Below are positions 1 to 39,312 of a stretch of DNA of 64,000 nt, in pieces. The notes beneath the pieces were generated by a model. It did not search any database. It was not told the origin of the DNA and saw nothing but the letters and a program-made list of their open reading frames with translations. Within the stretch, counting starts at the first letter, position 1; the number at the start of each line of letters is the position of its first letter. A program made the translations under genes and the position numbers. The stretch is from positions 2,046,001 through 2,110,000 of the forward strand of contig NC_018214.1 in NCBI RefSeq assembly GCF_000219625.1, read 5' to 3'. This DNA comes from Zymoseptoria tritici IPO323. Taxonomy: Eukaryota; Ascomycota; Dothideomycetes; Mycosphaerellales; Mycosphaerellaceae.

Positions 1-109
1 TATTACGACTGCTTAGCAAGCTGCTAAAGATGTTGCTTATTATTAAAGCTTGCTTCTTCGCTAGCGTAGTCTCCGGCTCGGGGCTGCTAAATAGGTCGGT
101 AAGTGCTAG

Positions 110-1045
110 TTTCTTCCTTTTAGATTTCCGGGCCGAAGGGACGACTAGATCGTCTTTATCTTTAACGTCTATTTCTCCGAAGCTGCCGGGCAAATTCTTT
201 CGATCCGAGCGGCGCCTAGAACAGTCCTCGTCGATAGGAACCCTCCTACCTTAAGTTAGTCGCTCTAATCTCGTACTCCTATACTGCTTGCGCTCTCGGA
301 CCTTAGCCTTCGGCATGCTAAACACTAGTATAGAGTCTTTAGATCCGGATAAGGACATCTATCTCTCCTCGGCCGTAGCTATCTTAGTTTAGTCTCGAGC
401 TATAGTAGCATTCCTAATAGCAGTCCGACATGCTTCTATAGTCTTAGCTGCTACGCTTTCTATCCGACTAACGTAAGCCTCTGCAGTATTGTACTAGCTA
501 AAGACGAATAGAATGTTAAGTGTACCTACTATGTAGTCTTCTCGTAGGATAGAGTCGTTCGAAGTAGGATAGCTAACGGCATCTAGGATACTATCTCCGT
601 CGAAGATGTCTGTAATATTAACTTCGGCTAGGACGCGTCTAAGTAATGCTAATAGCGGATCGTTACGCCGTCTGGTCGACGTATTAGCCGTATTTTTAGA
701 TGCTAGCCTGTTATAAACTCGCGATAACTTCCTTCTGCTAATGCTGTATCCCTTCTTATTGCCGTCTAGTAGGCAGTTGGTATACGCGCCCGACTAGAGC
801 TTGGACAAACTATCCGGCGCCGGGAATATATAGTAGCCTTTAACGAAGCCTTTCTGGTTATCGTATAGACCGCATTAGTCGCAGCCGCGTTAACTATCCT
901 TCTCCTCCGGCTCGCCTATACGCTCGGCACCTACTATAAAGCTAGCTAGGATCGCAAAAAGCGAAGTAGTGCTTATATACAGGTAGAAATCGTTGCGGCC
1001 GCGCATACGCGTAGCGATCTTGTCCCGGGGAATAAGCTTCGCCTA
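110..1045 (-). pseudogene. unidentified protein remnant in RIP block
   Basis: Reading the minus strand downward from about 1045 gives one frame of roughly 300 codons with only a few TAG/TAA stops, as expected of a RIP-killed gene. The part near 830 reads GYYIFPAPDSLSKL and is followed by a basic Arg/Ser-rich stretch and then an Arg/Lys-rich tail near 120-300. I do not recognise the family. It lies downstream of the DUF6589-like remnant on the same strand, so it may be the same element or even the same protein's C-terminal part. It is non-functional as read. Confidence 0.4.
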
Positions 1046-2099
1046 GTCGGCTCGGCTGTCGAGGAGAAGCATAAGTTCGGTGTGCGGTCTGCTAGAGGTG
1101 TGTAACCTAGGTATAAATCTCTTAAGTGGATCTAGTATAGCACTATCCTCCTATGTAAGGACGCTATAAAGCTTAACGATAAACGCTATTACCTCGAGCT
1201 CTAATATCCGTATTTTTAGCTAGCTGAACTAGTTCGCCTATATCTAGATGCATGCCGCGTTATACTAGTCTTAATTAGTGCCTAGTAGGGCTTCGCCAAA
1301 GTCGGCTAGTCGCTAGAGACCTAAGAGGTTTCTGCCGCTCGTAGGAGTGCTTATAGTAAGCTAGTATTCGAGTTCGCGTATGTTCGCGAAGGTAGGTAAT
1401 AGAAGAGATAGTTAATTAGTAGATAAAGTAGATAAGAGAGTAGATAAGGAAGTAGATAATAAAGTGGAATCGAGATGTTGTTAGTAGATAGAAGAGTTCC
1501 GAGTAATAATATTAATAGGGCGGTAGATATACTAGGAGGCACCTATGTAGTTAACACAATTAATGCCCGTAAATTTCGGTGAATTAGCTAACGATAGTAG
1601 GCGCATAACAGCGCCCTACTACGCCCGGTTTGCTCCTATGTAGCACGTAGCGACTAGCGAAGTAACTAACATTACTCTACCTCGCCTTGTTATAAAAGCT
1701 CTAATTCGTATCCGTCTATCGGATCCTAGGATAATATAATAAGTCCAGGTGTTAGGTCGGTCGCTACCGCTCGTTGTAAGTAAGGGTCCGTCCTTAGGTC
1801 CGGAAGCTCTATACTAACAGACAATAAGGGCTAGTCGGCCTATACAATCTATTGTCCTTTAACTACTACGTTCTTATTAAAGCGTTCTAGACAGCTAATA
1901 TTCTTAACTAGAGTTACTAGGTTCTTAACACCTATAGCATATAGGTCTATAGCGTAAAACTAGGCTACTACGTTAGGATCCGGATCGACTTCTTTAGTCT
2001 TTAACGTCTCGTCCTAGCATACCGCTGCGACGGTATGCACCTCTTTAACTAATTTTAGGGACGTATGCTTTATGTTTGTAGACTCCCCGAAGCTAGCCT

Positions 2100-4215
2100 C
2101 TATAACCTCTCGCAGATAGCTAGTATACGTTACTAAGAGGGTTGCCTCTTCTAGTTAATTCTCGACGTCGAATGTCCTATTACGGCGGCTGCTAATAAGA
2201 GTCTTTAGGTATCGATTAAGGAACTCGTTTGCCTAGTTAATCTCGAACTAACTGTCCTCGGCACCTACTATGTTTACGAACCCGTTCGCTAGCATCGCTC
2301 TTTATAGTACCGGATCTAACACCTTAGAATCGGTTAGCTATTTTATCTATAGCATAATAAAAGCGTAATTCTTGTAGCTACGTGCATAGAAGATTAGGAT
2401 ACAGCGGTTAACAACTCGACGTAGTAGGCTAATGTCCGCATATTTAATAGCCCGGCTAAGTATATAATACGTCTTAACGATATATAGGAATCGGACATAG
2501 TTTCTCCGCTCTTCGTTTCTATCGATCCGGGCAGCTGCCTTTTTAGTCGCCTTTGCCTTCTTCCCCTGCTGCTTCTTCGAGGAGTACGAATTCTTTACCT
2601 TCTAGGTGTTAGCTTTAATAGCATCGGGTTCTAGGCGACGAGCAGACGGCGAGAACACCTTCTCGTACACCTTTCCGACTAGACTTATAAAGCCGTCGGC
2701 TAATAGCGCCTAGATATAGTTAGATATAACATACCTCTTAGGAACTACCGAGTCGATTTCTTCGTACACGAATGCTAGTACCCTTATATTAAAGCTGTCG
2801 AGTGTTAGTCGTTCCAGGTAGCTATACGGCGCGTAAAATAATAGACATATCTTCCGCTCTATTATCTCCTAGTATACTAGGAGTAACGATTTAGCCTAGC
2901 AGCCCTCTCTACTATTAAAATTGTTCTCGATTGCCTATATTAGACATATCTTAAGGTAGAAGAGCCTAGGCAATAGCAATACCTATTATATGCAGTTAAA
3001 ATCGTCCTTATTCTCCCGGGACTCCTTTAGCTACGTCCGCATATTACTTACGGAGAGCTAATCGCTGTACATTAGTAGAATATACCTAGAGGGGTTATAT
3101 ATACTACCCGTAAAGTCCTCGACTAGCCGTCGAACACGTAGAACGTCGTCCTTAGCACGTTCTCCGTCCGTAGGTAGTCGATTGCGAGTACTAGAGGGCT
3201 AGTCTCGACTAGTAGGAGGCGGATTCTATAGCGTAGGAAGGCGGTTCTGCGAGGTAGGCGGCTAGTATTATAAGCTAGGAGGCTAACTCTATAAGGTAGG
3301 CGGCTAGTACTATAAGCTAGGAGGCTAACTCTACGAGGTAGGCAGCTAATATTGCGAGCTAGGAGGGCAGCTTTACGAGGTAGGCGGCTAGTATTATAAG
3401 CTAGGAGGGCAGCTTTGCGAGGTAGGTAGCTAATATTATAAGCTAGGAGGGCAGCTTTGCGAGGTAGGCGGCTAATATTGCGAGGAGGGGGGCTAAATTT
3501 GTATGCTAGGACGATAGTTATTAGCTGTAAGCGACTAATTTAGAGGAGCGGGCACTTAGGTCTGCCTAGTAGAGGGCTAGGTCTAAGTAGTAGAAGGGTG
3601 TTCGTAGTAGTCGAAATTACTAGGGCGGCAGATCTAGTCCGCGTTCTGTCCTTTAACAGCCTATTCGTACAATTCCCTAAGCTTAAGTTGCTCCTCTAGT
3701 ATATTCTCTATAACGTTATAAGTGCCTTCGGTCGTGCCCTCTTATTTATAGATTAGATTTATAGTAGTACTAATAGTTTTCTACTTTACTATATAATTAA
3801 AAGCCGGGAATTAAGGGAAGCCCTTTACTTTAGTCTAGTCGATGCTATTAGGGTTAGCTTTGCTACTAGTAGCGGTATCTCTACTAATACTAGGGTCCTA
3901 GCTAACATTCTTCTTCTTCTTCGGTTTCTTTTTTAAAATAGAATTGTTAGATTCGATACTAAATGCCTATACAACGTCGGCTAGATATACCCTTGCTATA
4001 GCGCTTACGATTAAGTAGAGTAAGATCGCCTTCTGCTAAGCGTCGTGCTAGTTGCCCGGGCTATCTAGGATATCTTATAGCTAAAGCAGCCTATCCTCTC
4101 GGAATAGTTCTTTCTTTAGGCCTAAGCGTAGTACCTCGATGCTCTTAAACTATTTTGCGGTAGTAACATATTTTAGGACGTCCCGCCTACTAAAGCTATG
4201 CTAGCCGACGCGGGC
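2100..4215 (-). pseudogene. DUF6589-like protein remnant, RIP-inactivated
   Basis: Between about 2600 and 2100 the minus strand reads a Lys-rich stretch (KKQQGKKAKATKK) followed by segments such as IKYADISLLRRVVNRC, then ANGFVN and ANEFLNRYLKTL. The order and spacing (a His/Tyr-Ala-Asp-Ile helix, an Arg-Cys segment, AN-x-x-VN, NEFLN) match my memory of the DUF6589 domain found in fungal repeat-associated proteins. Further upstream, near 4200-3910, the strand reads another coherent stretch ending in a KKKPKKKKN nuclear-localisation-like run. Stops are nearly all TAG/TAA where Trp or Gln would fit. Family assignment is from pattern memory and is moderate; coding origin and RIP inactivation are clear. 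Confidence 0.55.
3251..3490. repeat. 42-bp tandem repeat, about 6 copies
   Basis: The motif beginning GAGGTAGGCGGCTAGTAT recurs at 3251, 3293, 3335, 3377, 3419 and 3461, an exact 42-bp step. 42 bp is 14 codons; one minus-strand frame reads a Pro/Gln/Ser/Tyr-rich unit (for example QSCPPS, QPPTS) once RIP-type stops are read as Gln. It is probably a low-complexity linker of the DUF6589-like protein. Confidence 0.85.
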
Positions 4216-6959
4216 AAAGTAGTCTAGGTTGTCGAATATACTATAGGTAAGGTTAGACCGGCCGAATGCCTTAATACGACCGGCAGCTAGGTCGTAGAGC
4301 ATCTAGTTGCAATAGTATATACTCTTTGAGTATCCGTATATACCTAGTCTAGCTAGGACCGTAAGAACGCGACGTTTAATACCTTAACTCTATAGGTATA
4401 CTCCTAACTGTATAGCGAACTAGTTCCCGGATCGAGGATGTCTTATGCGTAGAAGTATACTAGAAATAAGACTAATACGGCGGAGCATTAACTTAGAGAG
4501 ATCCTAAGTTGCCGGCAAGCCTAAGAGCTCCTTTACGAGAGCCTAAATAGATAGGACGTACTAACCTATAGCTGCTACCGCGTCTCTGTAATCTAGTTCT
4601 TCTACGGGCAGTTTTCTGTCCTAAGACCCGAATTCCTATATAGACTTAGCAACAGAACCTATACGTGCTAATATTACTTACCTTCCGTCCCTTTAGATCC
4701 TCGAGCTCTTTCGCTAGACTCGCAGCACTTAGCTACTTACTATTAGATATATATAGTGCGATGCACTCTACTACTTTATCCTCCTGTAGAATCCGTGCTA
4801 ACTTTGCTGCCCTAGTAGCCGCCCGCTCGCCCTAGTTAGGTATGTTCTATTCTTTCTTAGTCGTTACATAAAGCGTTAGGAAGTCCTCGAACGACAGGTA
4901 CTGCCCGCGAATAGTCTATAGTATAAAGTCTACTTTCTCGCGAGCGGACTTCGAGTCGCTATGCTAGTTGTTCCCTCTCTTCCTCCTAGTCGGCTTAGGT
5001 TTCGTCTGCTAGCTAGCTTTAGTCGTAAGTAGCAGCGAGCCCTCGGGCGAATTAGATAGCGACTAGGGGGCAGGTAGACGAGGACTACGCATACGGCGAG
5101 AACTAGAAGCTAACTGTTGTTAATCTATATTATAAGATATTAATATTAACTTAGCTTAAGATAAGGTCGACGACAGTGTTAACTAATGTTAACTAAGAGC
5201 CTAGTAGCTAAAAATACACTTATAACTTAGCATTCTTAGCAAAACAAACTACCTAGCGCCGACTACCTCTTCTCTCTATTTAGCTTATCTATATAATTAT
5301 TAATCTACCTAAGTCGATGCCGCTAATAAACCCCGTTTACAACCCGCTTCCTGCCTCGAGATGTTTCCGCAGTTATAGGCGACTAGGCTGCTTCGGAGGA
5401 TGCTAGAGAAACAGGAGTAGGCGTACGAGAGCCTCGACGATTAGGATCTAATTCTATGCCGAATCTGCGCACTAGCGAGGCTTAGGCAACAATAGGACTA
5501 GAAGCCGCGCTCTTACCCTTCCGAGAGCCTACCGCTATAAGGCTAGGAACTACTATAGGAGGTAGAGGCTAGGCGCTAGTAGATAGGCTAGGAGCAGGTA
5601 GAGGAGGAGCTTTCGCCTTCCCTCGGCGGCGCTTAGAACTAGTAACGACTAAGAAGGTAGGCGATACTAAGGAGGGTGTACGAGCAAGGACCGAACGAGC
5701 ACTACTAGTAGTAAAGGCGACAATACGAGGGTCCGGAGCACTAGCAGACCTTACTTCCTAAGAGGCTACGAAACAATCCTATTCTCGACTAGAAGAGGCC
5801 TCTTCTCGTCGGAGCCGCTAGCGCTAGCGCTCCTCCTAGCGCTCCCTCTCCCGACCCTCGCGCTTAGTCGCAAGCTCTTATAGCCGCTAGGCTTTAATAG
5901 ACTCTACGACCTTACGTAGGGTCGACAACTACAGTACTAGCATGTCGCACAACTTAGAAGAGACTGCGAAGTCGACACCTATATAGAGTCCCTAGATCCG
6001 GCTATAGCTAAAATCGGGTAGCGCGTCCTCTATACTATACGCTTTAGCGAGGTAGTTAACTACATACGAAGGCAGTAGAGACCTAGGAACTCCCGGAAAG
6101 ATAGCGTTGCTATAGTATAACTAAGCGGCTCCGGACTCCTATTTAATTAGACTATCGCGGATCGACTTAAGGTATAGCCGGGTAATGCTTGCCGCCGTAC
6201 GAGTACCTAGATTAGTCGCCTATTCGAGCATATAATCCGAAGGTAGAGCGGACGCCGGCGAGCAGATATCGCAATAGACACGTCCTGCTACTAGCCTAGG
6301 TACCTCGGAAAACAACTTAAGTGCTATAACGCGGCGATAAGACGGTAGAAAGGACGTGCTGCTCGGCGGATAAGCGTTAACAAACTTCTAGACATATCTA
6401 TCTATCTTGTCGCGCTTCTGCTAATTCGTTAGTTTACCTTTTTTTTTCTTCGACTAGCTAACCTAAAGAGGCTTATCGACATCTAAACTAGCGTCTAACA
6501 GGCAATCTATGTTAGCGTTAGAGCTCGTAGGCGTTGCGGTATCGTCGTCTACTTAGCTCTGCTATCTCGTAGGGACCTAAGAGTCCGGCGGCCTTTATAT
6601 AACCTGATTACCGAGCATCTACGGATTATGCAGGAACGTAAACAAACTAGCTCCCTATTTTCGACTGTCTCGGACTGCGCGGCTAGTACGCTAGATAATA
6701 GTACGTATAGTGCCGTTTATAGCTAGTCGGTACTGCACAATATGTTTAATGTTAGGTAAGTTAACCTTTAGGCTAAGCGCCTTAGTAGCTAGAAGGATGC
6801 GGATGCGGGAGTCGGGCTTCTAGAACTCTCGGATAACATTTGCCTAAGTCCTCCTTATAGTCCTGCCGTAGTAAGTCCTTACGAGCTAGTATACTTCGTC
6901 CGAACTTAGCTAACTAGGATACCTTACTTAGATATAGGCCCGGAGACTAGTAGCAGCGG

Positions 6960-7780
6960 CATAGATGCTAGCATAGCTGTTAATAAAGACAACCGTCTTC
7001 TCTACGCTCTAAGGTCTAGCAACGCCGTCTAGGCCGACTAGGTCTACGAGCAGATACCAAAGCGCCCGCTAGTTCGTTAGCATCCTGTCTGGAATAGTAT
7101 AATACTGCATTAATATCTCCGGCCGATCGATCGGATCGCGAATAAGCTAAGTGTCCGGGTCGAACCCGGCCGCCTCCTAACATTTAAGTAGAGTAGACGC
7201 ATTAAGTATCGCAGAGCAGCCGTAAAACTTTACCTGCTCGTAAAGTATAGTCCGGAGGTTCTTTAGCTAGGTATACTATTTCCGGAATCCTCCTCCCTTA
7301 ATGCCCTACTAGTAGACGAGATAAAACTTATCGTAGACAAGTATTCCTAGCCTTTTCCGTACGTCGGTCCTTATTATAAGCTTCTAGAACTAGGACTATA
7401 TAGCTATCTCTAGAGATAATATTAAGTAGGTGCACCTACTATAATACAGGAGTTTCTAGTCGTCCGCTGTAGTACTAGCCTTTGTATTATGTGTTAGTGC
7501 AACTAGCTTGCCTCCTATGCCTTCGATCCTTTTAAACTATTCCCTACTAATCTAGTTTAAGGGCAAGATTAGGATCGACATCTTGTTGCGGATAATAGGC
7601 TATACCTAGAAGACAAGGCTCTTGCCTACGGACGTAGCAGCGATCTAGATAAGATCTCGGTTATTAAATAGTAGCTAGTAGAGTACCCGGACCTGTAGCG
7701 GGCGAGCGTAGTAGGGAAGGAGGAGTCGTACCGCCTGCTAAACTAAATGCATCTGCTAAGTAGTAGTTATAGGTAGCCCG
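6960..7780 (-). pseudogene. RecQ/telomere-linked-type DEAH helicase remnant, RIP-inactivated
   Basis: The minus strand read from about 7780 downward gives helicase motifs in the right order: an upstream Q-rich lead ending LLFNNRDLI, motif I as ATSVGKSLVF (7640-7610), motif Ia as ILILPLN, a segment VRKRLGILVYD leading into motif II, motif III as FYGCSAIL (about 7230), RPEILMQYYTIPDRM (about 7100), and motif IV as KTVVFINS (about 6990). Motif II, normally DEAH, reads D-K-F-Y, so the Walker B Glu and the His are lost by TG-to-TA and CA-to-TA changes. The similarity is to fungal RecQ-like helicases of subtelomeric repeats. The remnant probably extends further on both sides (about 5300-8440). Confidence 0.75.
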
Positions 7781-8540
7781 CTATTAACGAGGACAGGCTC
7801 GTCGATCGCCTAGTTAATTATATTACGCACCTAAAGAAACGCCCGCCGGCGCGATAGTATAAACAGACTGCTAACTATATCTTTAGGTATCTCGAGGGTT
7901 AGCTTACTATTAGCGCCTACCGGACCGAGCTAGGTAGAACGTATAGCTTCCGGGTTAGTGTTTTGCCGCTATACATTATGTAGCGCCTAAAGCACGACCT
8001 TCTCTATGCCTGCGTTGTTAACCTCTACTAGCGTACGTAACAGAGCGGCGGTTATCTTAGCTACCTATTCGCGTCGCCTGGCGAAATAGATCCTTATATC
8101 CCCTCTACCTAGGACTTTCTATATAGACAAATCTTCCTCGGACGCCTTAACGGATGCTTATAGACTACCCTAAAGCCCTCCTATATCGTCGAAGTTACTA
8201 GGTACGTCTAAAAGCCCGCTGTTACTACTATCGTCGTCGCCTAGGTACCTATCGAACTAGTCGAGTAGGGTAGCTATACGTTTAATATCTATACTAGGAG
8301 ACTACTTTTACGATCGATTTTCCTCGACGACCGACGTCCCTATACTGTTCTTATCTTATCCGGTACTGCTAGTACTAAAGCTGCTCGAGATATCGCTAGC
8401 GCAAAATCGGGGATTAGCGACCTTTAGTTGTCTATAGCGGGCCTTCGGGGGAGCTATTAGAGAATCGGGGACTGTAACTTTGCAAAGGGAGCGCGTGCGG
8501 TTCTAGTAGATATAGTTTTGTTAGTATTAGTCGCTAACTA

Positions 8541-14331: not shown

Positions 14332-14603
14332 AAGTGGAAGAAGAAGATACGATGAAGATCGCTGCGCCTCATGGTAAGTCTCACCTTTCTGTCCTGGTCA
14401 GCCAGCCATCGCTCTGGACTGTCACGAGCCCTGCGATCGGTGACTTGACTCAGTGTCTTGGAATGTGGACGAGATACTCGCGCCGGAGTTTTCTCATTCT
14501 TTGCTCAGCCGACTGCCCACTCCAGTCTCATCTTCCAACGAAGCATCTGCCCACTCAAACTCCATTCACAAATCAACTGTGAGTTCAACCGTCCTCAAAC
14601 AAC

Positions 14604-14804
14604 ATGAAGCTCTTCGCCTTCGTCTCGGTCATGATCGCCGTCATGACCTCTGGTGTTTTTGCCGATCTGGTCGTCCTCGCATCTGACCCAGTCTCCGTTA
14701 CAGGATGCGTGTTTCAACGCTGCAAAGGCAAAATGCGGCGAAATAATGCCAGCTGCAAGACCAGCATACGCAAAGGCAAGGCGACTTTCAGCATCGACTG
14801 CTAG
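14604..14804 (+). CDS. small secreted cysteine-containing protein, 66 aa
   Basis: A single-exon gene starting in good context (CAACATGA). The signal peptide is clear (MKLFAFVSVMIAVMTSGVFA), giving a mature peptide of about 46 residues with four Cys, a basic core (QRCKGKMRRNN, SIRKGK) and a final Cys immediately before the stop. Size, four Cys and net positive charge resemble fungal secreted effectors or antimicrobial peptides (inference). The 5' region 14530-14603 is rich in CT and CAA as in expressed fungal genes. No family recognised. Confidence 0.65.
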   Translation: MKLFAFVSVMIAVMTSGVFADLVVLASDPVSVTGCVFQRCKGKMRRNNASCKTSIRKGKATFSIDC

Positions 14805-18232: not shown

Positions 18233-18829
18233 TTAGCAGCCCATAACGCATGATGGGGGATAAACTGAAGCGTCTGGTTTTTCTTTTCCATCTGCGGCTT
18301 CTCGCTTGACTTCGCAATCTCCAATCATTCGGCAGTCTGGGTTCTCGGGGACGACGCTAGCACGGCTTTCGAGCTGGTCTTGGAGCTGAGCTGCAGCGGC
18401 GGAGTCCTCTCTTTTGATCTTGCAATCGTTGTCGACGCAGGTTTGGGGATATACGCTGGCCCGGCGATTCAGATCGTTTCGAACCTGAACTGCGGCGGTA
18501 GCGGGTGCGTCTCTCTTCCTGTCGCAGGGGGGATCGGCGCAAGTGTCGGGCCACGGGACAGAGCGGCGATCGAGATGGTCCTGCAACTGAGCTGCGGCGG
18601 CAGACTCATCTCTCTTTCTGCCGCAGTCGCTGTTGGCACAGATGGCGGGAACGACGCTGGCACGGCGGTCAATGTCGCCGTGAGGGAGAGCCGCGCCGAC
18701 TTGGAGCCAGAGAGGCGAACTCGGCGAAGAGGGCGTAGACGGCTGCTTTGCGAGTCTCGCCAAGCGGACGGTCAAATTTCCAAAGGGCCAAACCCCATTT
18801 GTTGCATATGGTAGCACAAGACTGACCAT
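18233..18829 (-). CDS. Kex2-type repeat peptide precursor with five Cys-pair peptides
   Basis: A 198-codon frame whose residues 52-198 are built of five diverged repeats. Each holds (A)SV-x-P, one to a few residues, then a pair of Cys 3-5 residues apart: C64/C69, C97/C102, C131/C136, C166/C172 and C194/C198. Repeats are bounded by basic sites (RR at 55-56, 88-89, 122-123; KR at 72-73, 105-106, 139-140, 175-176) and separated by acidic/Ala spacers such as ESAAAAQLQD. This is the layout of precursors cut by Kex2-type proteases, as in alpha-factor pheromones and fungal KEP/RiPP precursors. The N-terminus is uncertain: the annotated ATG gives no good signal peptide, but a leader-like run (AAVYALFAEFASLA) lies in another frame near 18750-18700, suggesting a frameshift, hidden splice or miscalled base. 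Product function unknown. Confidence 0.6.
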   Translation of the reverse strand: MVSLVLPYATNGVWPFGNLTVRLARLAKQPSTPSSPSSPLWLQVGAALPHGDIDRRASVVPAICANSDCGRKRDESAAAAQLQDHLDRRSVPWPDTCADPPCDRKRDAPATAAVQVRNDLNRRASVYPQTCVDNDCKIKREDSAAAAQLQDQLESRASVVPENPDCRMIGDCEVKREAADGKEKPDASVYPPSCVMGC

Positions 18830-19016: not shown

Positions 19017-20126
19017 CTACGAACAATTGACTTCCACCCTCGCCGTCCTGACCGCAATCAGATTCCCGTTGAAGCTCGATCCGCTCATCGTTCCCTGAAC
19101 CTTCACAGTCCATCCAACAGTAGGCGCCGAACTGCTCGTCGTCTTTCCATTACAGCTGACCTGCGCACTGACACCTCCATCCGTCAACGCCGCCCTCGCT
19201 AGCCCAGTGCTCGTACCGCTGCCCGAAGCAGCTCCACTACTCCTCGCACTCACGCCCGACTCGCAGAATATCGAACTCACACTTCCGCTGGTGGCTGATC
19301 GTCCGCTAGACCCGACGGGATAAGTCACCGTCGTGACGACTTGTGCGCTTGCTGACGCTCCGTTTGCGGCGGCGGCACAAGTCCCTGCGGCGAGAGCGTC
19401 TTGAGGGCTGCCTTGCAGTGTGGTTGAAGTTGATGCGGAGGGCACATCGGCGGAGCTGAAGATGCTGACCGGGTTGGTTGAGCCGGTCACTGTGGCGGTG
19501 GAGTCGGCAGTACCGGACGAAGAGGTGCTGGAGATTGTTTTGCGGCGTTGAATTGCGCCGCCGGATCTGTAGAGGACTGATCGTCAGGACTGAGATAGCG
19601 ATTGAGTCCATCATCAAAGACGCAGTCGTCGTTGGATCAAGCTGGATCCTTTCCCACATGCAATCGGCATCTGCATTATATGTTGCCATGATGGTACTTA
19701 CGAAGCCGCATTCCCGTCACTGAATGAGAACGCCGAGACCAGATTCGTGTCCGCGGTTGCAGAGATGTTGGTGTAGGAAGCATCACCGTTCAAAGTCGTC
19801 GAATCCGAATCCGTCTGTATGGCATCGCTGTTCGGAGGAGCGAGTGAGTTTGTCGAAGTAGTGGAGGCAGCTTTGCTCGCAAAGTAATTTTCGGTCGAGA
19901 CGATAGTCTGAGAGAGCTGGTTATAGTTGAGATTATAGTTGTAGCCTTGGGACTGCAGGTAGGATTTGAGAGTGGCAGAGTTTTCGAAAGACCTGAACTG
20001 AGAGTCGGAAACGGAGAGGGTGATGGAGACTTGCTGAGTTTGGCGAGCTTGAAGCCGAGAACCGGGGAGAGGATTTGCGTTGGCAAAGCAGAGCAGGGCT
20101 GTGAGTAGGAAGGAGAGGGAAAGCAT
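19017..20126 (-). CDS. secreted Ser/Thr-rich hypothetical protein
   Basis: Two exons joined by intron 19567-19701 (donor GTAAGT, branch CTGAC, acceptor CTACAG) give 324 aa. The start at 20126 was preferred to the in-frame ATG at 20189 because the signal peptide (MLSLSFLLTALLCFANA) begins there. The mature N-terminal half is rich in Ser, Thr, Asn and Gln, with aromatic NYN repeats. The C-terminal half has four Cys and a compact beta-like stretch ending EVNCS. No family is recognised. It looks like a cell-wall or extracellular protein with an O-glycosylated region (inference). Confidence 0.7.
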
Positions 20127-20695
20127 CGCTGCAACGATTCTGGGAGGGCGAACCTGTGGAAGCGGTTGTAGACCTGTCTCTGCGGACATAGTCTTCGCTT
20201 TTTATACTTCTGTTCACTCCGATTCCTCTACTCCAGGATCGTGGGGCACACTGTGTCAATAGTCTAGGTCGACCAAGTGGAGTACGCATCCGAAACCACA
20301 TCCCCGAATTGGTGACATATCGCAAGCGCCATGTCGAGCGCTGAGAGAGTCTCCACGGCATGGCAGGCGCAATCGCGGTGGGATGTGTTCGATGCTATGC
20401 CGTGACCAGTATCGCCAAAGGGCTAGTCGGAACAAACTTCAGTCCAGCACCAAACCACTTGAGCCTCGACGAACGGCAGACATGGCTTGAAGTTGTATAA
20501 GTGCTGGCGGTTGACCTTTTCCAATCAGAAGCTCCGAGTGCCATATACACTAAGGTCTTCGTGCATGTGGAGGTATGCCACTTGTGAGCTATTGAAAGGC
20601 ATAGCTGTCAGTCAGTTGACCAACACATGGAGAGAAAAAATACTAACGAGTCAAACCTGTAAGAAGCAGGCACTGCATACAGGCTGCTTGTTGGT
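20127..20695. other. promoter region and spacer
   Basis: Upstream of the minus-strand secreted gene. Nothing else seen. Confidence 0.3.
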
Positions 20696-37084: not shown

Positions 37085-38230
37085 AATCTTATAAATTAGC
37101 TTATGTCTTTAACACCGGATAACACAAGGTGTTGTTGTCGGATTAAGCTAGTTTATAGCTTATTTAAAAGCTAGCATTGTGCTCTACAGTTCTTGTATAC
37201 ATTGCTTGTCCTTAATACCTGGTGTGCTAGCCCTGTGCAGCGATTAATGCCTTAACCCTCCTTAGCATTGAACTAATTACTTCCTCGATAATATCGCGTG
37301 AAATAAGCTTCTACGCGCAGCTCGTAGACCTTCTTTTCTAAGTGCCACTACACGTGTTTAATCGGGTTTATATCCGGGCTGTAAGGTAGCTAGCTAATAT
37401 GCAGCTAGACCGTGTTATCGCTTATCTACTGCGTTGTAAGATGCGCAGTGTGCACCGGTACGTTGTCCTGTTAAAAGCACTAACCCTCGTAATATAGAAG
37501 GAGTCCTTCTTCAAGAGTCTTATAGTAAGAACGTGCTAAATACCCTCCGCGTAGACTATCGGCATTACGCTCTATTATTACAAGGTGTGTGTCCTCGATT
37601 TCTATGCTAATTATGCCCTAAACTATTACGGAGCCTTGCTTGCCCTTTAGATATGTTGTAATGCGTTGTTTAGTCTACTTCTCGTATAGGTATCCGAATG
37701 CCTAAGCCGTCTCTTTGCCGGTGCCTTTCTCGACTGAACACTCGTCTAAAAACAGCTACCGTAACTAGTCTATGTTACGGTGTGCATACGCCTAAGCGAG
37801 CCGGATTCGAGCATGTTTATCTATAAGCTCCGGACGCTTCTTACAACGCTAGTTTATTAAGCCGTGGTTACTTAGAATCGCTCGAAGAATCTACGCGCTA
37901 AGATTCGAGCTATAGCCGTCGCGTAGCTGCGCATACGTAAATTTCGGGTCTTTTCTCGCGATTCGAACGACGAGTCTCGCGTCGCGTGCGGTATAGGTTC
38001 GAGGGCGGCCGGTGCGTAGTTTGTTATCGAGGGATTGTCGTTGTGCGATACGCGTTAAACAGTCCCTTACAGTCGTATATAGAAGCTATTCGAGCGTCGC
38101 GATCTCGGCGTTAGTCTAGCCAGCCGCATGTCGTCCCCACAGCCTTCCCTTTTGGTTAGGTGTTAGTTTAGTATTAATTACACGATTGTGTGCAATTAGG
38201 GCCAGAGGGGTGCGTAGTGTAGCCATCAAG
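37085..38230 (-). mobile_element. Tc1/mariner-type DNA transposon, RIP-inactivated
   Basis: TA-rich, CA-poor sequence between normal flanks. Minus-strand translation from about 38150 to 37290 gives a full Tc1-like transposase: an N-terminal helix-turn-helix region, an RTGRPRTYTARDARLVVRIA linker, the first catalytic Asp in LFLDECSVEKGTG, the second in FQQDNVPVHTA, and LPYSPDINPIKHV where the third acidic residue (usually Glu in NPIEH) has become Lys. About ten TAG/TAA codons interrupt the frame, most where the family has Trp (for example IV-stop-GII for VWG). Ends are unclear: I could not pair terminal inverted repeats with confidence. The element is dead. Confidence 0.85.
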
Positions 38231-38351
38231 AGCGTGTGGAAGAATGGTGTTGAAAAACGCGATCACGAAGTTCGCGCGCCAAGGCGTAGATTTAGTGCCT
38301 AGTACTGTACTTACTCGCGATGCGAAGACTTTGAACCCGACGTCAGACAAC

Positions 38352-38406
38352 CACGACAGCAACAACAGCAACAGCAACAGCAACAACAGCAACAGCAACA
38401 GCAACA
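38352..38406. repeat. AAC/AGC trinucleotide microsatellite
   Basis: An interrupted run of CAACAG/AACAGC units about 55 bp long just outside the RIP block, followed by ACC-rich sequence. Confidence 0.85.
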
Positions 38407-39312
38407 CCACCGTCACACCACCACCACAATGACACCTGCACCACGACGACAACACACCAGCACACCATTAATGCTGCCTGCATGGCCGAGTGACGAGTGA
38501 AGCCTCCACACCGTAACGCTCTTCCCAAACCATCGAGAGCGGTGACCGAGTCATATACCAAGTTGCATCCTTGCAGCACTGCCGTTGCGGTGTGCGTTCC
38601 AAAATGCCGTACATGCTTCTTCTATCATCTTGGACCGAGATCAGGTCTGGATCTGGAGAGCAGAGCGGGAGTGAACTCGTCGCAAGAAAAGTCTTCTCTC
38701 GATGCCTGAGGCAGAAATGCCTAGTCATATTCGATGTCGCGACAAACAACAAACAACGATGTGCTGAGCAAACAGTCAATCCCACTCAGCAGTCTCAATC
38801 GCGAGCTGCTCATTCAACCTGAGTACGTGCCTCTCGCGACCAAGCTGCACCAAGCATGGAGATCTCGCTTCGCGAAGAGCTTCTGAGGTCGCAGTAATTC
38901 GCTTCGGAGAGCTGCGTTGGCTTGGATCTTGCACCTCGTTCGACAAGGCATGTGCTGCGCCGTCAAACCTGGTCTTGCTCGGGCTCTGCGCGAGAGAATG
39001 TTCAATCAAGCAGGCCTTGATCACTCGATCAGCTTGAGGTGGCAGTCTGAGCATGTCTCTTGAAGAAGATAGCGGCGATGAGAGCTTGTAGTACGACGTC
39101 TGTCGAACAGCTGCAATCACGTCGTCCATTGCAGCGTGTCAAAATCGGCCGTTGAGTATACATCCTTACGAGAAGCCCACCCGCTTCTTGCCAACATCCC
39201 TGCCGCCAAGGAGACGCTTCAAGCTTGCATTGACTGTTGCCTACGAAGGCTACACCTAAATGGGCATCATCTGCACAGCGCTCCTCCGCATTGCAAAGCC
39301 TGGGGGCACGAT
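38407..39312. other. spacer
   Basis: No supported gene. It holds motif copy 5 at 38703. Confidence 0.3.
38703..38713. other. palindromic motif TGCCTNAGGCA, copy 5
   Basis: TGCCTGAGGCA in context GATGCCTGAGGCAGAAATGC, followed by CTAGTCAT, as at copies 1 and 2. Confidence 0.8.

What the first reader, a model, noticed from the sequence alone, without database searches (positions are those of the whole stretch)
18233..18829. Undescribed repeat peptide precursor with five Cys-pair cores and Kex2-type sites
Five diverged repeats each contain (A)SV-x-P followed by a Cys pair 3-5 residues apart, flanked by RR or KR and separated by Ala/Gln/acidic spacers. The layout matches alpha-factor pheromone or KEP/RiPP precursors, but the core does not match the W-C...C pheromone core or the ustiloxin-type core I know. 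It may give rise to a family of small disulfide peptides, with secreted proteases as neighbours.
Basis: partly seen in the sequence, partly recalled or inferred. Interest (0 to 1): 0.85.

Follow-up and report, generated by a model that had tools for sequence, protein, structure and literature searches.

The report
Unannotated fungal repeat-peptide precursor, unresolved start
A wheat-pathogen fungus carries an apparently unannotated stretch of DNA that reads as a string of small cysteine-paired peptides separated by protease cut sites, laid out like its mating-pheromone precursor but with unrelated peptides; it looks shaped by selection, yet no secretion signal or relative was found, so it may be a young gene or a decaying one.

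Summary
The array is real: minus strand, 18829-18233, Zymoseptoria tritici IPO323 contig C5. Five diverged units carry SV, P and a Cys pair; units 1-3 lie between RR and KR, unit 4 between SR and KR, unit 5 has no basic pair before it. In units 1-3 the six processing and disulfide residues (RR, C, C, K, R) are invariant; 0 of 20,000 random placements of the observed differences keep all six. Units 1 and 3 differ mainly at synonymous sites (p 0.011); the other two pairs do not show this significantly. The layout matches the fungus's alpha-pheromone precursor on C7; the peptides do not align. No homologue was found, although a matched control worked, and no second genomic copy. Against: codon usage does not single out this frame, and no start or intron model gives a convincing signal peptide. 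Best reading: a lineage-restricted Kex2-processed repeat protein (KEP), working (0.45) or decayed (0.35); a new member of a known, very diverse kind. Pheromone and ustiloxin readings failed their tests; 'secreted proteases as neighbours' is not confirmed.

The parts
18233..18829 (-). Whole ORF from the first ATG to the stop (198 residues); true start unresolved
18662..18829 (-). Leader as read in frame, ending IDRR; no convincing signal peptide
18611..18661 (-). Unit 1 core with C-side site: ASVVPAICANSDC-GRKR
18563..18610 (-). Spacer 1, ending LDRR
18512..18562 (-). Unit 2 core with C-side site: SVPWPDTCADPPC-DRKR
18461..18511 (-). Spacer 2, ending LNRR
18410..18460 (-). Unit 3 core with C-side site: ASVYPQTCVDNDC-KIKR
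18362..18409 (-). Spacer 3, ending LESR (fits the extended LxxR Kex2 motif, no basic pair)
18302..18361 (-). Unit 4 core with C-side site: ASVVPENPDCRMIGDC-EVKR
18236..18271 (-). Unit 5: ASVYPPSCVMGC, at the C terminus, no basic pair directly before it

Best explanation
A working, apparently unannotated, single-copy and lineage-restricted Kex2-processed repeat protein of Zymoseptoria tritici whose 5' end is not yet known. Inferred mechanism: the precursor enters the secretory pathway; Kex2 cuts before each of cores 1-4 after [I/L]-x-[R/S]-R and behind them after KR; a Kex1-type carboxypeptidase trims the basic ends; peptides of about 14-18 residues with one short disulfide loop are exported and act as secreted signals in the fungus's dealings with itself, its host or competitors; unit 5 would stay in a 22-residue tail. 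Shown: the array, its duplication history, and retention of Cys and cleavage residues between diverged units. Inferred: secretion, cutting, the disulfide and the function.
For: Six of six processing/disulfide columns invariant in units 1-3, three of them with synonymous differences; 0 of 20,000 random placements keep all six; hypergeometric 5e-4. Units 1-3 pair: dN 0.27, dS 0.88, reversed or equal in the other sense frames; Fisher p 0.011. N-side P4 residues I, L, L, L with R at the cut in 4 of 4, the preference described for Kex2 in PMC8528282 (passages). Same order of parts as the fungus's alpha-pheromone precursor. One Kex2-type P_proprotein match in the genome.
Against: No convincing signal peptide in 25 and 155 gene models; intronless leader hydropathy 1.03 against a median of 2.39 in 20 alpha-precursor homologues. 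Codon usage does not single out the frame: -8.3 against 0.3 in another minus frame and 5.9 in a plus frame; synonymous usage -0.004 per codon, between coding and off-frame values, and -0.001 in another minus frame. Excess of synonymous change not significant for pairs 1-2 (p 0.16) and 3-2 (p 0.33). No homologue at E <= 10. No expression data.
Confidence: 0.45

Rival explanations
1. A decayed KEP gene: the repeats are a relic of a precursor that once worked, and the leader is no longer usable, at least in this reference strain, so no peptide is made now.
For: Between-unit conservation shows past selection only. No usable signal peptide. A mildly hydrophobic stretch (best 10-mer 1.61) lies in the neighbouring frame just upstream of the repeats, has no ATG in that frame and runs into a stop. 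Units 4 and 5 have lost, or never had, N-side basic pairs. Weak codon signal and no homologous protein.
Against: The repeat frame is open over all five units. The hydrophobic stretch is weak and may be chance. Two of six cores of the working-type alpha precursor also lack an N-side basic pair (HR, QR).
Confidence: 0.35
2. Not a gene: a tandem duplication in non-coding DNA that happens to be open in one frame.
For: Codon usage ambiguous; a plus-strand frame is open over the same stretch (18269-18814); no homologue.
Against: Retention of the six named columns (0 of 20,000) and dN below dS between units 1 and 3.
Confidence: 0.12
3. A mating pheromone precursor: a second alpha-type gene or an h-type (hybrid) precursor.
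For: Same processing layout as the alpha precursor; two Cys per core, as in that pheromone.
Against: The alpha-pheromone precursor is a separate gene on C7 and does not align with this ORF (best 18.5 bits, E 0.16); cores lack W-C-G; the C terminus VMGC is not a CaaX box, which h-type precursors need (abstract of PMC3068285).
Confidence: 0.05
4. A ustiloxin-type cyclic peptide (RiPP) precursor.
For: Repeats between Kex2 sites; Z. tritici is reported to have such a precursor with YVIP cores (passages of PMC7329392).
Against: No UstYa (PF11807) match in the window; the nearest on C5 is at 2137547, about 73 kb away. Cores have no YxIx.
Confidence: 0.03

Closest known systems
Alpha-pheromone precursor of Z. 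tritici (MYCGRDRAFT_110066, G000 C7) and its relatives
   Same: Signal-less comparison of the array: RR before most cores, two Cys per core, (x)xKR behind, then an acidic or Ala-rich spacer
   Different: Core GNSF[VT]GWCGA[IL]GAPCA is nearly identical in six copies, Cys six residues apart; here cores are diverged, Cys 3-5 apart; no alignment; that precursor has a clear signal peptide
Kex2-processed repeat proteins (KEPs; PMC6339444, PMC7329392)
   Same: At least three similar segments between KR/RR sites
   Different: Both surveys require a predicted signal peptide on an annotated protein; neither was found here
h-type pheromone precursor HPP1 (PMC3068285)
   Same: Repeated Cys-bearing motif and Kex2 sites
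   Different: No C-terminal CaaX; motif is not (LI)GC(TS)VM
Rep1, Hum3 and Rsp1 of Ustilago maydis (PMC4617103, passages)
   Same: Imperfect repeats separated by Kex2 motifs in a plant pathogen
   Different: Described there as amphipathic or hydrophilic repeats of 18-55 residues; sequences not compared here

Membership tests
KEP (Kex2-processed repeat protein) | At least three similar repeats of 8 or more residues between Kex2 sites | tested here: met
   Cores 1-3 lie between RR and KR; the surveys' own scoring (FIMO, 0.6 repeat score) was not run
KEP (Kex2-processed repeat protein) | N-terminal signal peptide | tested here: inconclusive
   None convincing in 25 and 155 models; hydropathy only, SignalP not available; 5' end unknown
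KEP (Kex2-processed repeat protein) | Actual cutting by Kex2 | not testable with these tools
   A Kex2-type gene exists; cutting not shown
Alpha-type mating pheromone precursor of this order | Core homologous to the known pheromone | tested here: not met
   No alignment; real gene on C7
Alpha-type mating pheromone precursor of this order | Ste13 signature (XA/XP after the Kex2 site) | tested here: inconclusive
   DA and EA follow KR in 2 of 4 cases, but at the start of spacers, not of cores
h-type pheromone precursor (HPP1) | C-terminal CaaX box as one of three motif copies | tested here: not met
   Last four residues VMGC
Ustiloxin-type RiPP | UstYa (DUF3328) gene close by | tested here: not met
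   None in the window; nearest about 73 kb away

The most novel reading that the evidence does not exclude
A working, unannotated precursor of several different small one-disulfide peptides, born within the Zymoseptoria lineage by converging on the alpha-factor processing layout and used in dealings with wheat or other microbes rather than in mating; it would show that KEP lists drawn from annotated, signal-bearing proteins miss fast-evolving, sequence-diversified members.
Probability: 0.25. Interest if true: 0.6.

Novelty: new member of a known kind. Interest (0 to 1): 0.34.

Why it matters
KEPs include mating pheromones, cyclic toxins and surface peptides; PMC7329392 (abstract) counts 7878, of which 2560 have no homologues. 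A candidate apparently missing from the annotation of a reference genome of a major wheat pathogen, with every peptide copy different, would add to its secreted peptide set. If it is decaying, it is a natural example of how such precursors turn over. Either way it is one more candidate in a large, poorly understood class, not a new mechanism.

Tried and rejected
Alpha-pheromone identity: rejected after locating that gene on C7 and finding no alignment. Hybrid pheromone: rejected on the C terminus. Ustiloxin-type cluster: rejected. Paralogues in the genome: none found by protein at E <= 1 or by DNA. Codon usage as proof of coding: tried twice, does not single out the frame. Splice-model search for a signal peptide: 25 and 155 models, none convincing; the donor preferences used are recalled, not trained, and only one-intron models within 19320-18600 were tried. 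A resemblance between the Cys pairs in the tail of the alpha precursor and these units was a lead only; the pairwise alignment does not support it. A comparison of loop size with other short one-disulfide peptides was recalled only and is not used. Literature: seven searches listed no paper that I could see to describe this locus; only titles, abstract starts and the named sections or passages were seen, and supplements could not be read, so a listing in a supplement is not excluded. PMC10711317 (passages) and PMC6265332 (term search without a match) gave nothing on it. Structure prediction was not run. Related genomes are not held by the genome tool for this window, so population and sister-species tests could not be made.

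Full report
What was looked at. The finding lies on the minus strand, 18829-18233. The window is G000:C5:2046001-2110000 of a 39,686,251-base genome in 21 contigs. A neighbouring sulfate permease is 100% identical (99% of the query) to a Zymoseptoria tritici ST99CH_3D7 protein. The alpha-pheromone precursor on C7 is 100% identical to MYCGRDRAFT_110066 of Z. tritici IPO323 on a contig of 2,665,280 bases, the length of C7. The host is therefore taken to be the wheat pathogen Z. tritici, strain IPO323.

The observation. The frame is open from 18907 to 18236 (224 codons). From the first ATG (18829) it reads 198 residues. Cutting in silico at KR and RR gives a leader ending IDRR, core 1, a spacer, core 2, a spacer, core 3, a segment holding a spacer plus unit 4, and a tail holding unit 5. 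Cores: ASVVPAICANSDC, SVPWPDTCADPPC, ASVYPQTCVDNDC, ASVVPENPDCRMIGDC, ASVYPPSCVMGC. Units 1-3 have basic pairs on both sides; unit 4 is preceded by LESR; unit 5 by no basic pair. DNA copies match their reference copy at 65-75% over 40 bases (spacing 99 and 102) and at 72% over 104 bases (spacing 201). Four 'C-x(3-5)-C then KR or RR' motifs occur; 0 of 20,000 shuffles of the same 148 residues reach three, and no other stop-free stretch of the window in six frames has two. Because the units arose by duplication, shuffles overstate the surprise, so the units were compared with each other.

Selection between units. Units 1 and 3 align without gaps over 33 codons with 6, 7 and 16 differences at codon positions 1, 2 and 3; dN is 0.27 and dS 0.88. 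In the other two sense frames dN exceeds dS (0.42/0.19, 0.36/0.33). The antisense frame that shares the wobble position behaves like the repeat frame (0.29/0.74), as geometry predicts, so this test does not tell the two strands apart. By site counts pS is 0.52 and pN 0.23, Fisher p 0.011; for pairs 1-2 and 3-2 the excess is not significant (p 0.16 and 0.33). In the three-unit comparison (32 columns, one codon left out of each 33-codon unit and two of unit 2's 34) 11 columns are invariant, among them all six of RR, C, C, K and R, which the finding had named beforehand; three of the six show synonymous differences. The hypergeometric chance is 5e-4, and 0 of 20,000 simulations that place the observed differences at random keep all six (mean 1.1 kept, at least five in 22). 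The simulation ignores mutation bias and shared history. The residues four places up from the N-side cuts are I, L, L, L, with R at the cut in 4 of 4. PMC8528282 (passages) describes a Leu or other aliphatic preference there and an extended motif LxxR, which LESR before unit 4 fits. I take this together as good evidence that the array is, or was, a protein in which these cut sites and cysteines mattered.

What does not fit. A raw codon score gives the repeat frame -8.3, another minus frame 0.3 and a plus frame 5.9; true coding segments average 26.4 (sd 14.8) and off-frame ones -39.2 (sd 13.6). Synonymous usage alone gives -0.004 per codon for the repeat frame, -0.001 for another minus frame, 0.075 (sd 0.088, 158 segments) for coding, -0.099 (sd 0.061, 474) for off-frame segments and 0.129 for the alpha precursor. 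So codon usage does not single out this frame. No convincing secretion signal was found: 25 models with donor limits and 155 relaxed one-intron models; the two top ones (2.15) rest on a 285-base intron with a poor donor and carry an Asp inside the stretch. The intronless model scores 1.03 in residues 2-30, against a median of 2.39 (range 0.8-3.26) in the 20 rows of the alpha-precursor search (in the 0.8 row the annotated Met lies well upstream of a hydrophobic stretch), and 1.90, 2.62 and 2.74 in three neighbouring reading frames. With its Met and first 40 residues counted the intronless model reaches 1.53. These are hydropathy values, not a signal-peptide predictor. A mildly hydrophobic stretch (1.61) lies in the next frame just upstream of the repeats, has no ATG in that frame and runs into a stop. 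This is compatible with a leader out of frame in this assembly, or with chance. I describe it and go no further.

Relatives. The 198-residue query had 857 word-sharing candidates, none with E <= 10. The control is matched in kind: the alpha precursor, also a repeat precursor of this fungus, returned itself and relatives (20 rows at E <= 1 among 7996 scored). So the collection holds at least some IPO323 proteins and such precursors from related fungi, and an annotated copy of this ORF would have been expected if it were there within 0.55-1.75 times the query's length. That it is unannotated is an inference from this absence; I saw no annotation table of the locus. The genome shows no second copy by protein at E <= 1 or by DNA. 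No Pfam family matches at E <= 0.01; at E <= 10 one match of 10.9 bits falls below its cut-off of 25.

Comparison with known kinds. The fungus's alpha precursor has six cores GNSF[VT]GWCGA[IL]GAPCA, preceded by RR in four and by HR and QR in the other two, followed by KVKR, RVKR, KAKR, KR, KVKR and KDKR and then D, S or E. The order of parts is the same as here; the sequences do not align (18.5 bits, E 0.16). KEPs were defined by two surveys (PMC6339444: abstract, Results, first part of the Discussion and the pipeline section; PMC7329392: abstract, sections 8 and 13 and passages). Both start from annotated proteins with a predicted signal peptide, so both would be expected to miss this ORF; their supplements were not readable. 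HPP1-type precursors (PMC3068285, abstract and passages) need a C-terminal CaaX box, which is absent. UstYa has 61 listed matches in the genome, counted by exon, none in the window, the nearest about 73 kb away. One Kex2-type P_proprotein match was found. KEP knock-outs tested in a mushroom showed no phenotype and synthetic peptides no antibacterial effect (PMC9769878, passages), a warning that function is hard to assign in this class.

Verdict. It is best read as a lineage-restricted KEP of Z. tritici: I put 0.45 on a working gene whose 5' end is not yet known and 0.35 on a decayed one. It belongs to a known, highly diverse class; I found no record of these peptides in the collection and papers searched.

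Noticed in passing
locus L007 (G000:C7:272000-276000), minus strand: The alpha-pheromone precursor of this fungus, six cores, is listed in the collection only as an uncharacterized protein (MYCGRDRAFT_110066); its tail holds two further Cys pairs close to KR or R.
   Followed up: partly
window 1-8000: G+C of 43-47% against 50-59% in the rest, with only short reading frames; looks like degraded repeat DNA.
   Followed up: no
window 19020-20201 (-): Two open stretches (19701-20201 and 19020-19583) that look like two exons of a Ser/Thr-rich protein with a hydrophobic start; no Pfam match.
   Followed up: no
window 14583-14801 (+): Short reading frame with a strongly hydrophobic start (MKLFAFVSVMIAVM...), no Pfam match.
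   Followed up: no
window 18269-18814 (+): The strand opposite the array is also open for 181 codons, no Pfam match.
   Followed up: partly
window 38177-38467 (-): Reading frame with a long poly-Leu run, probably a simple-sequence repeat.
   Followed up: no
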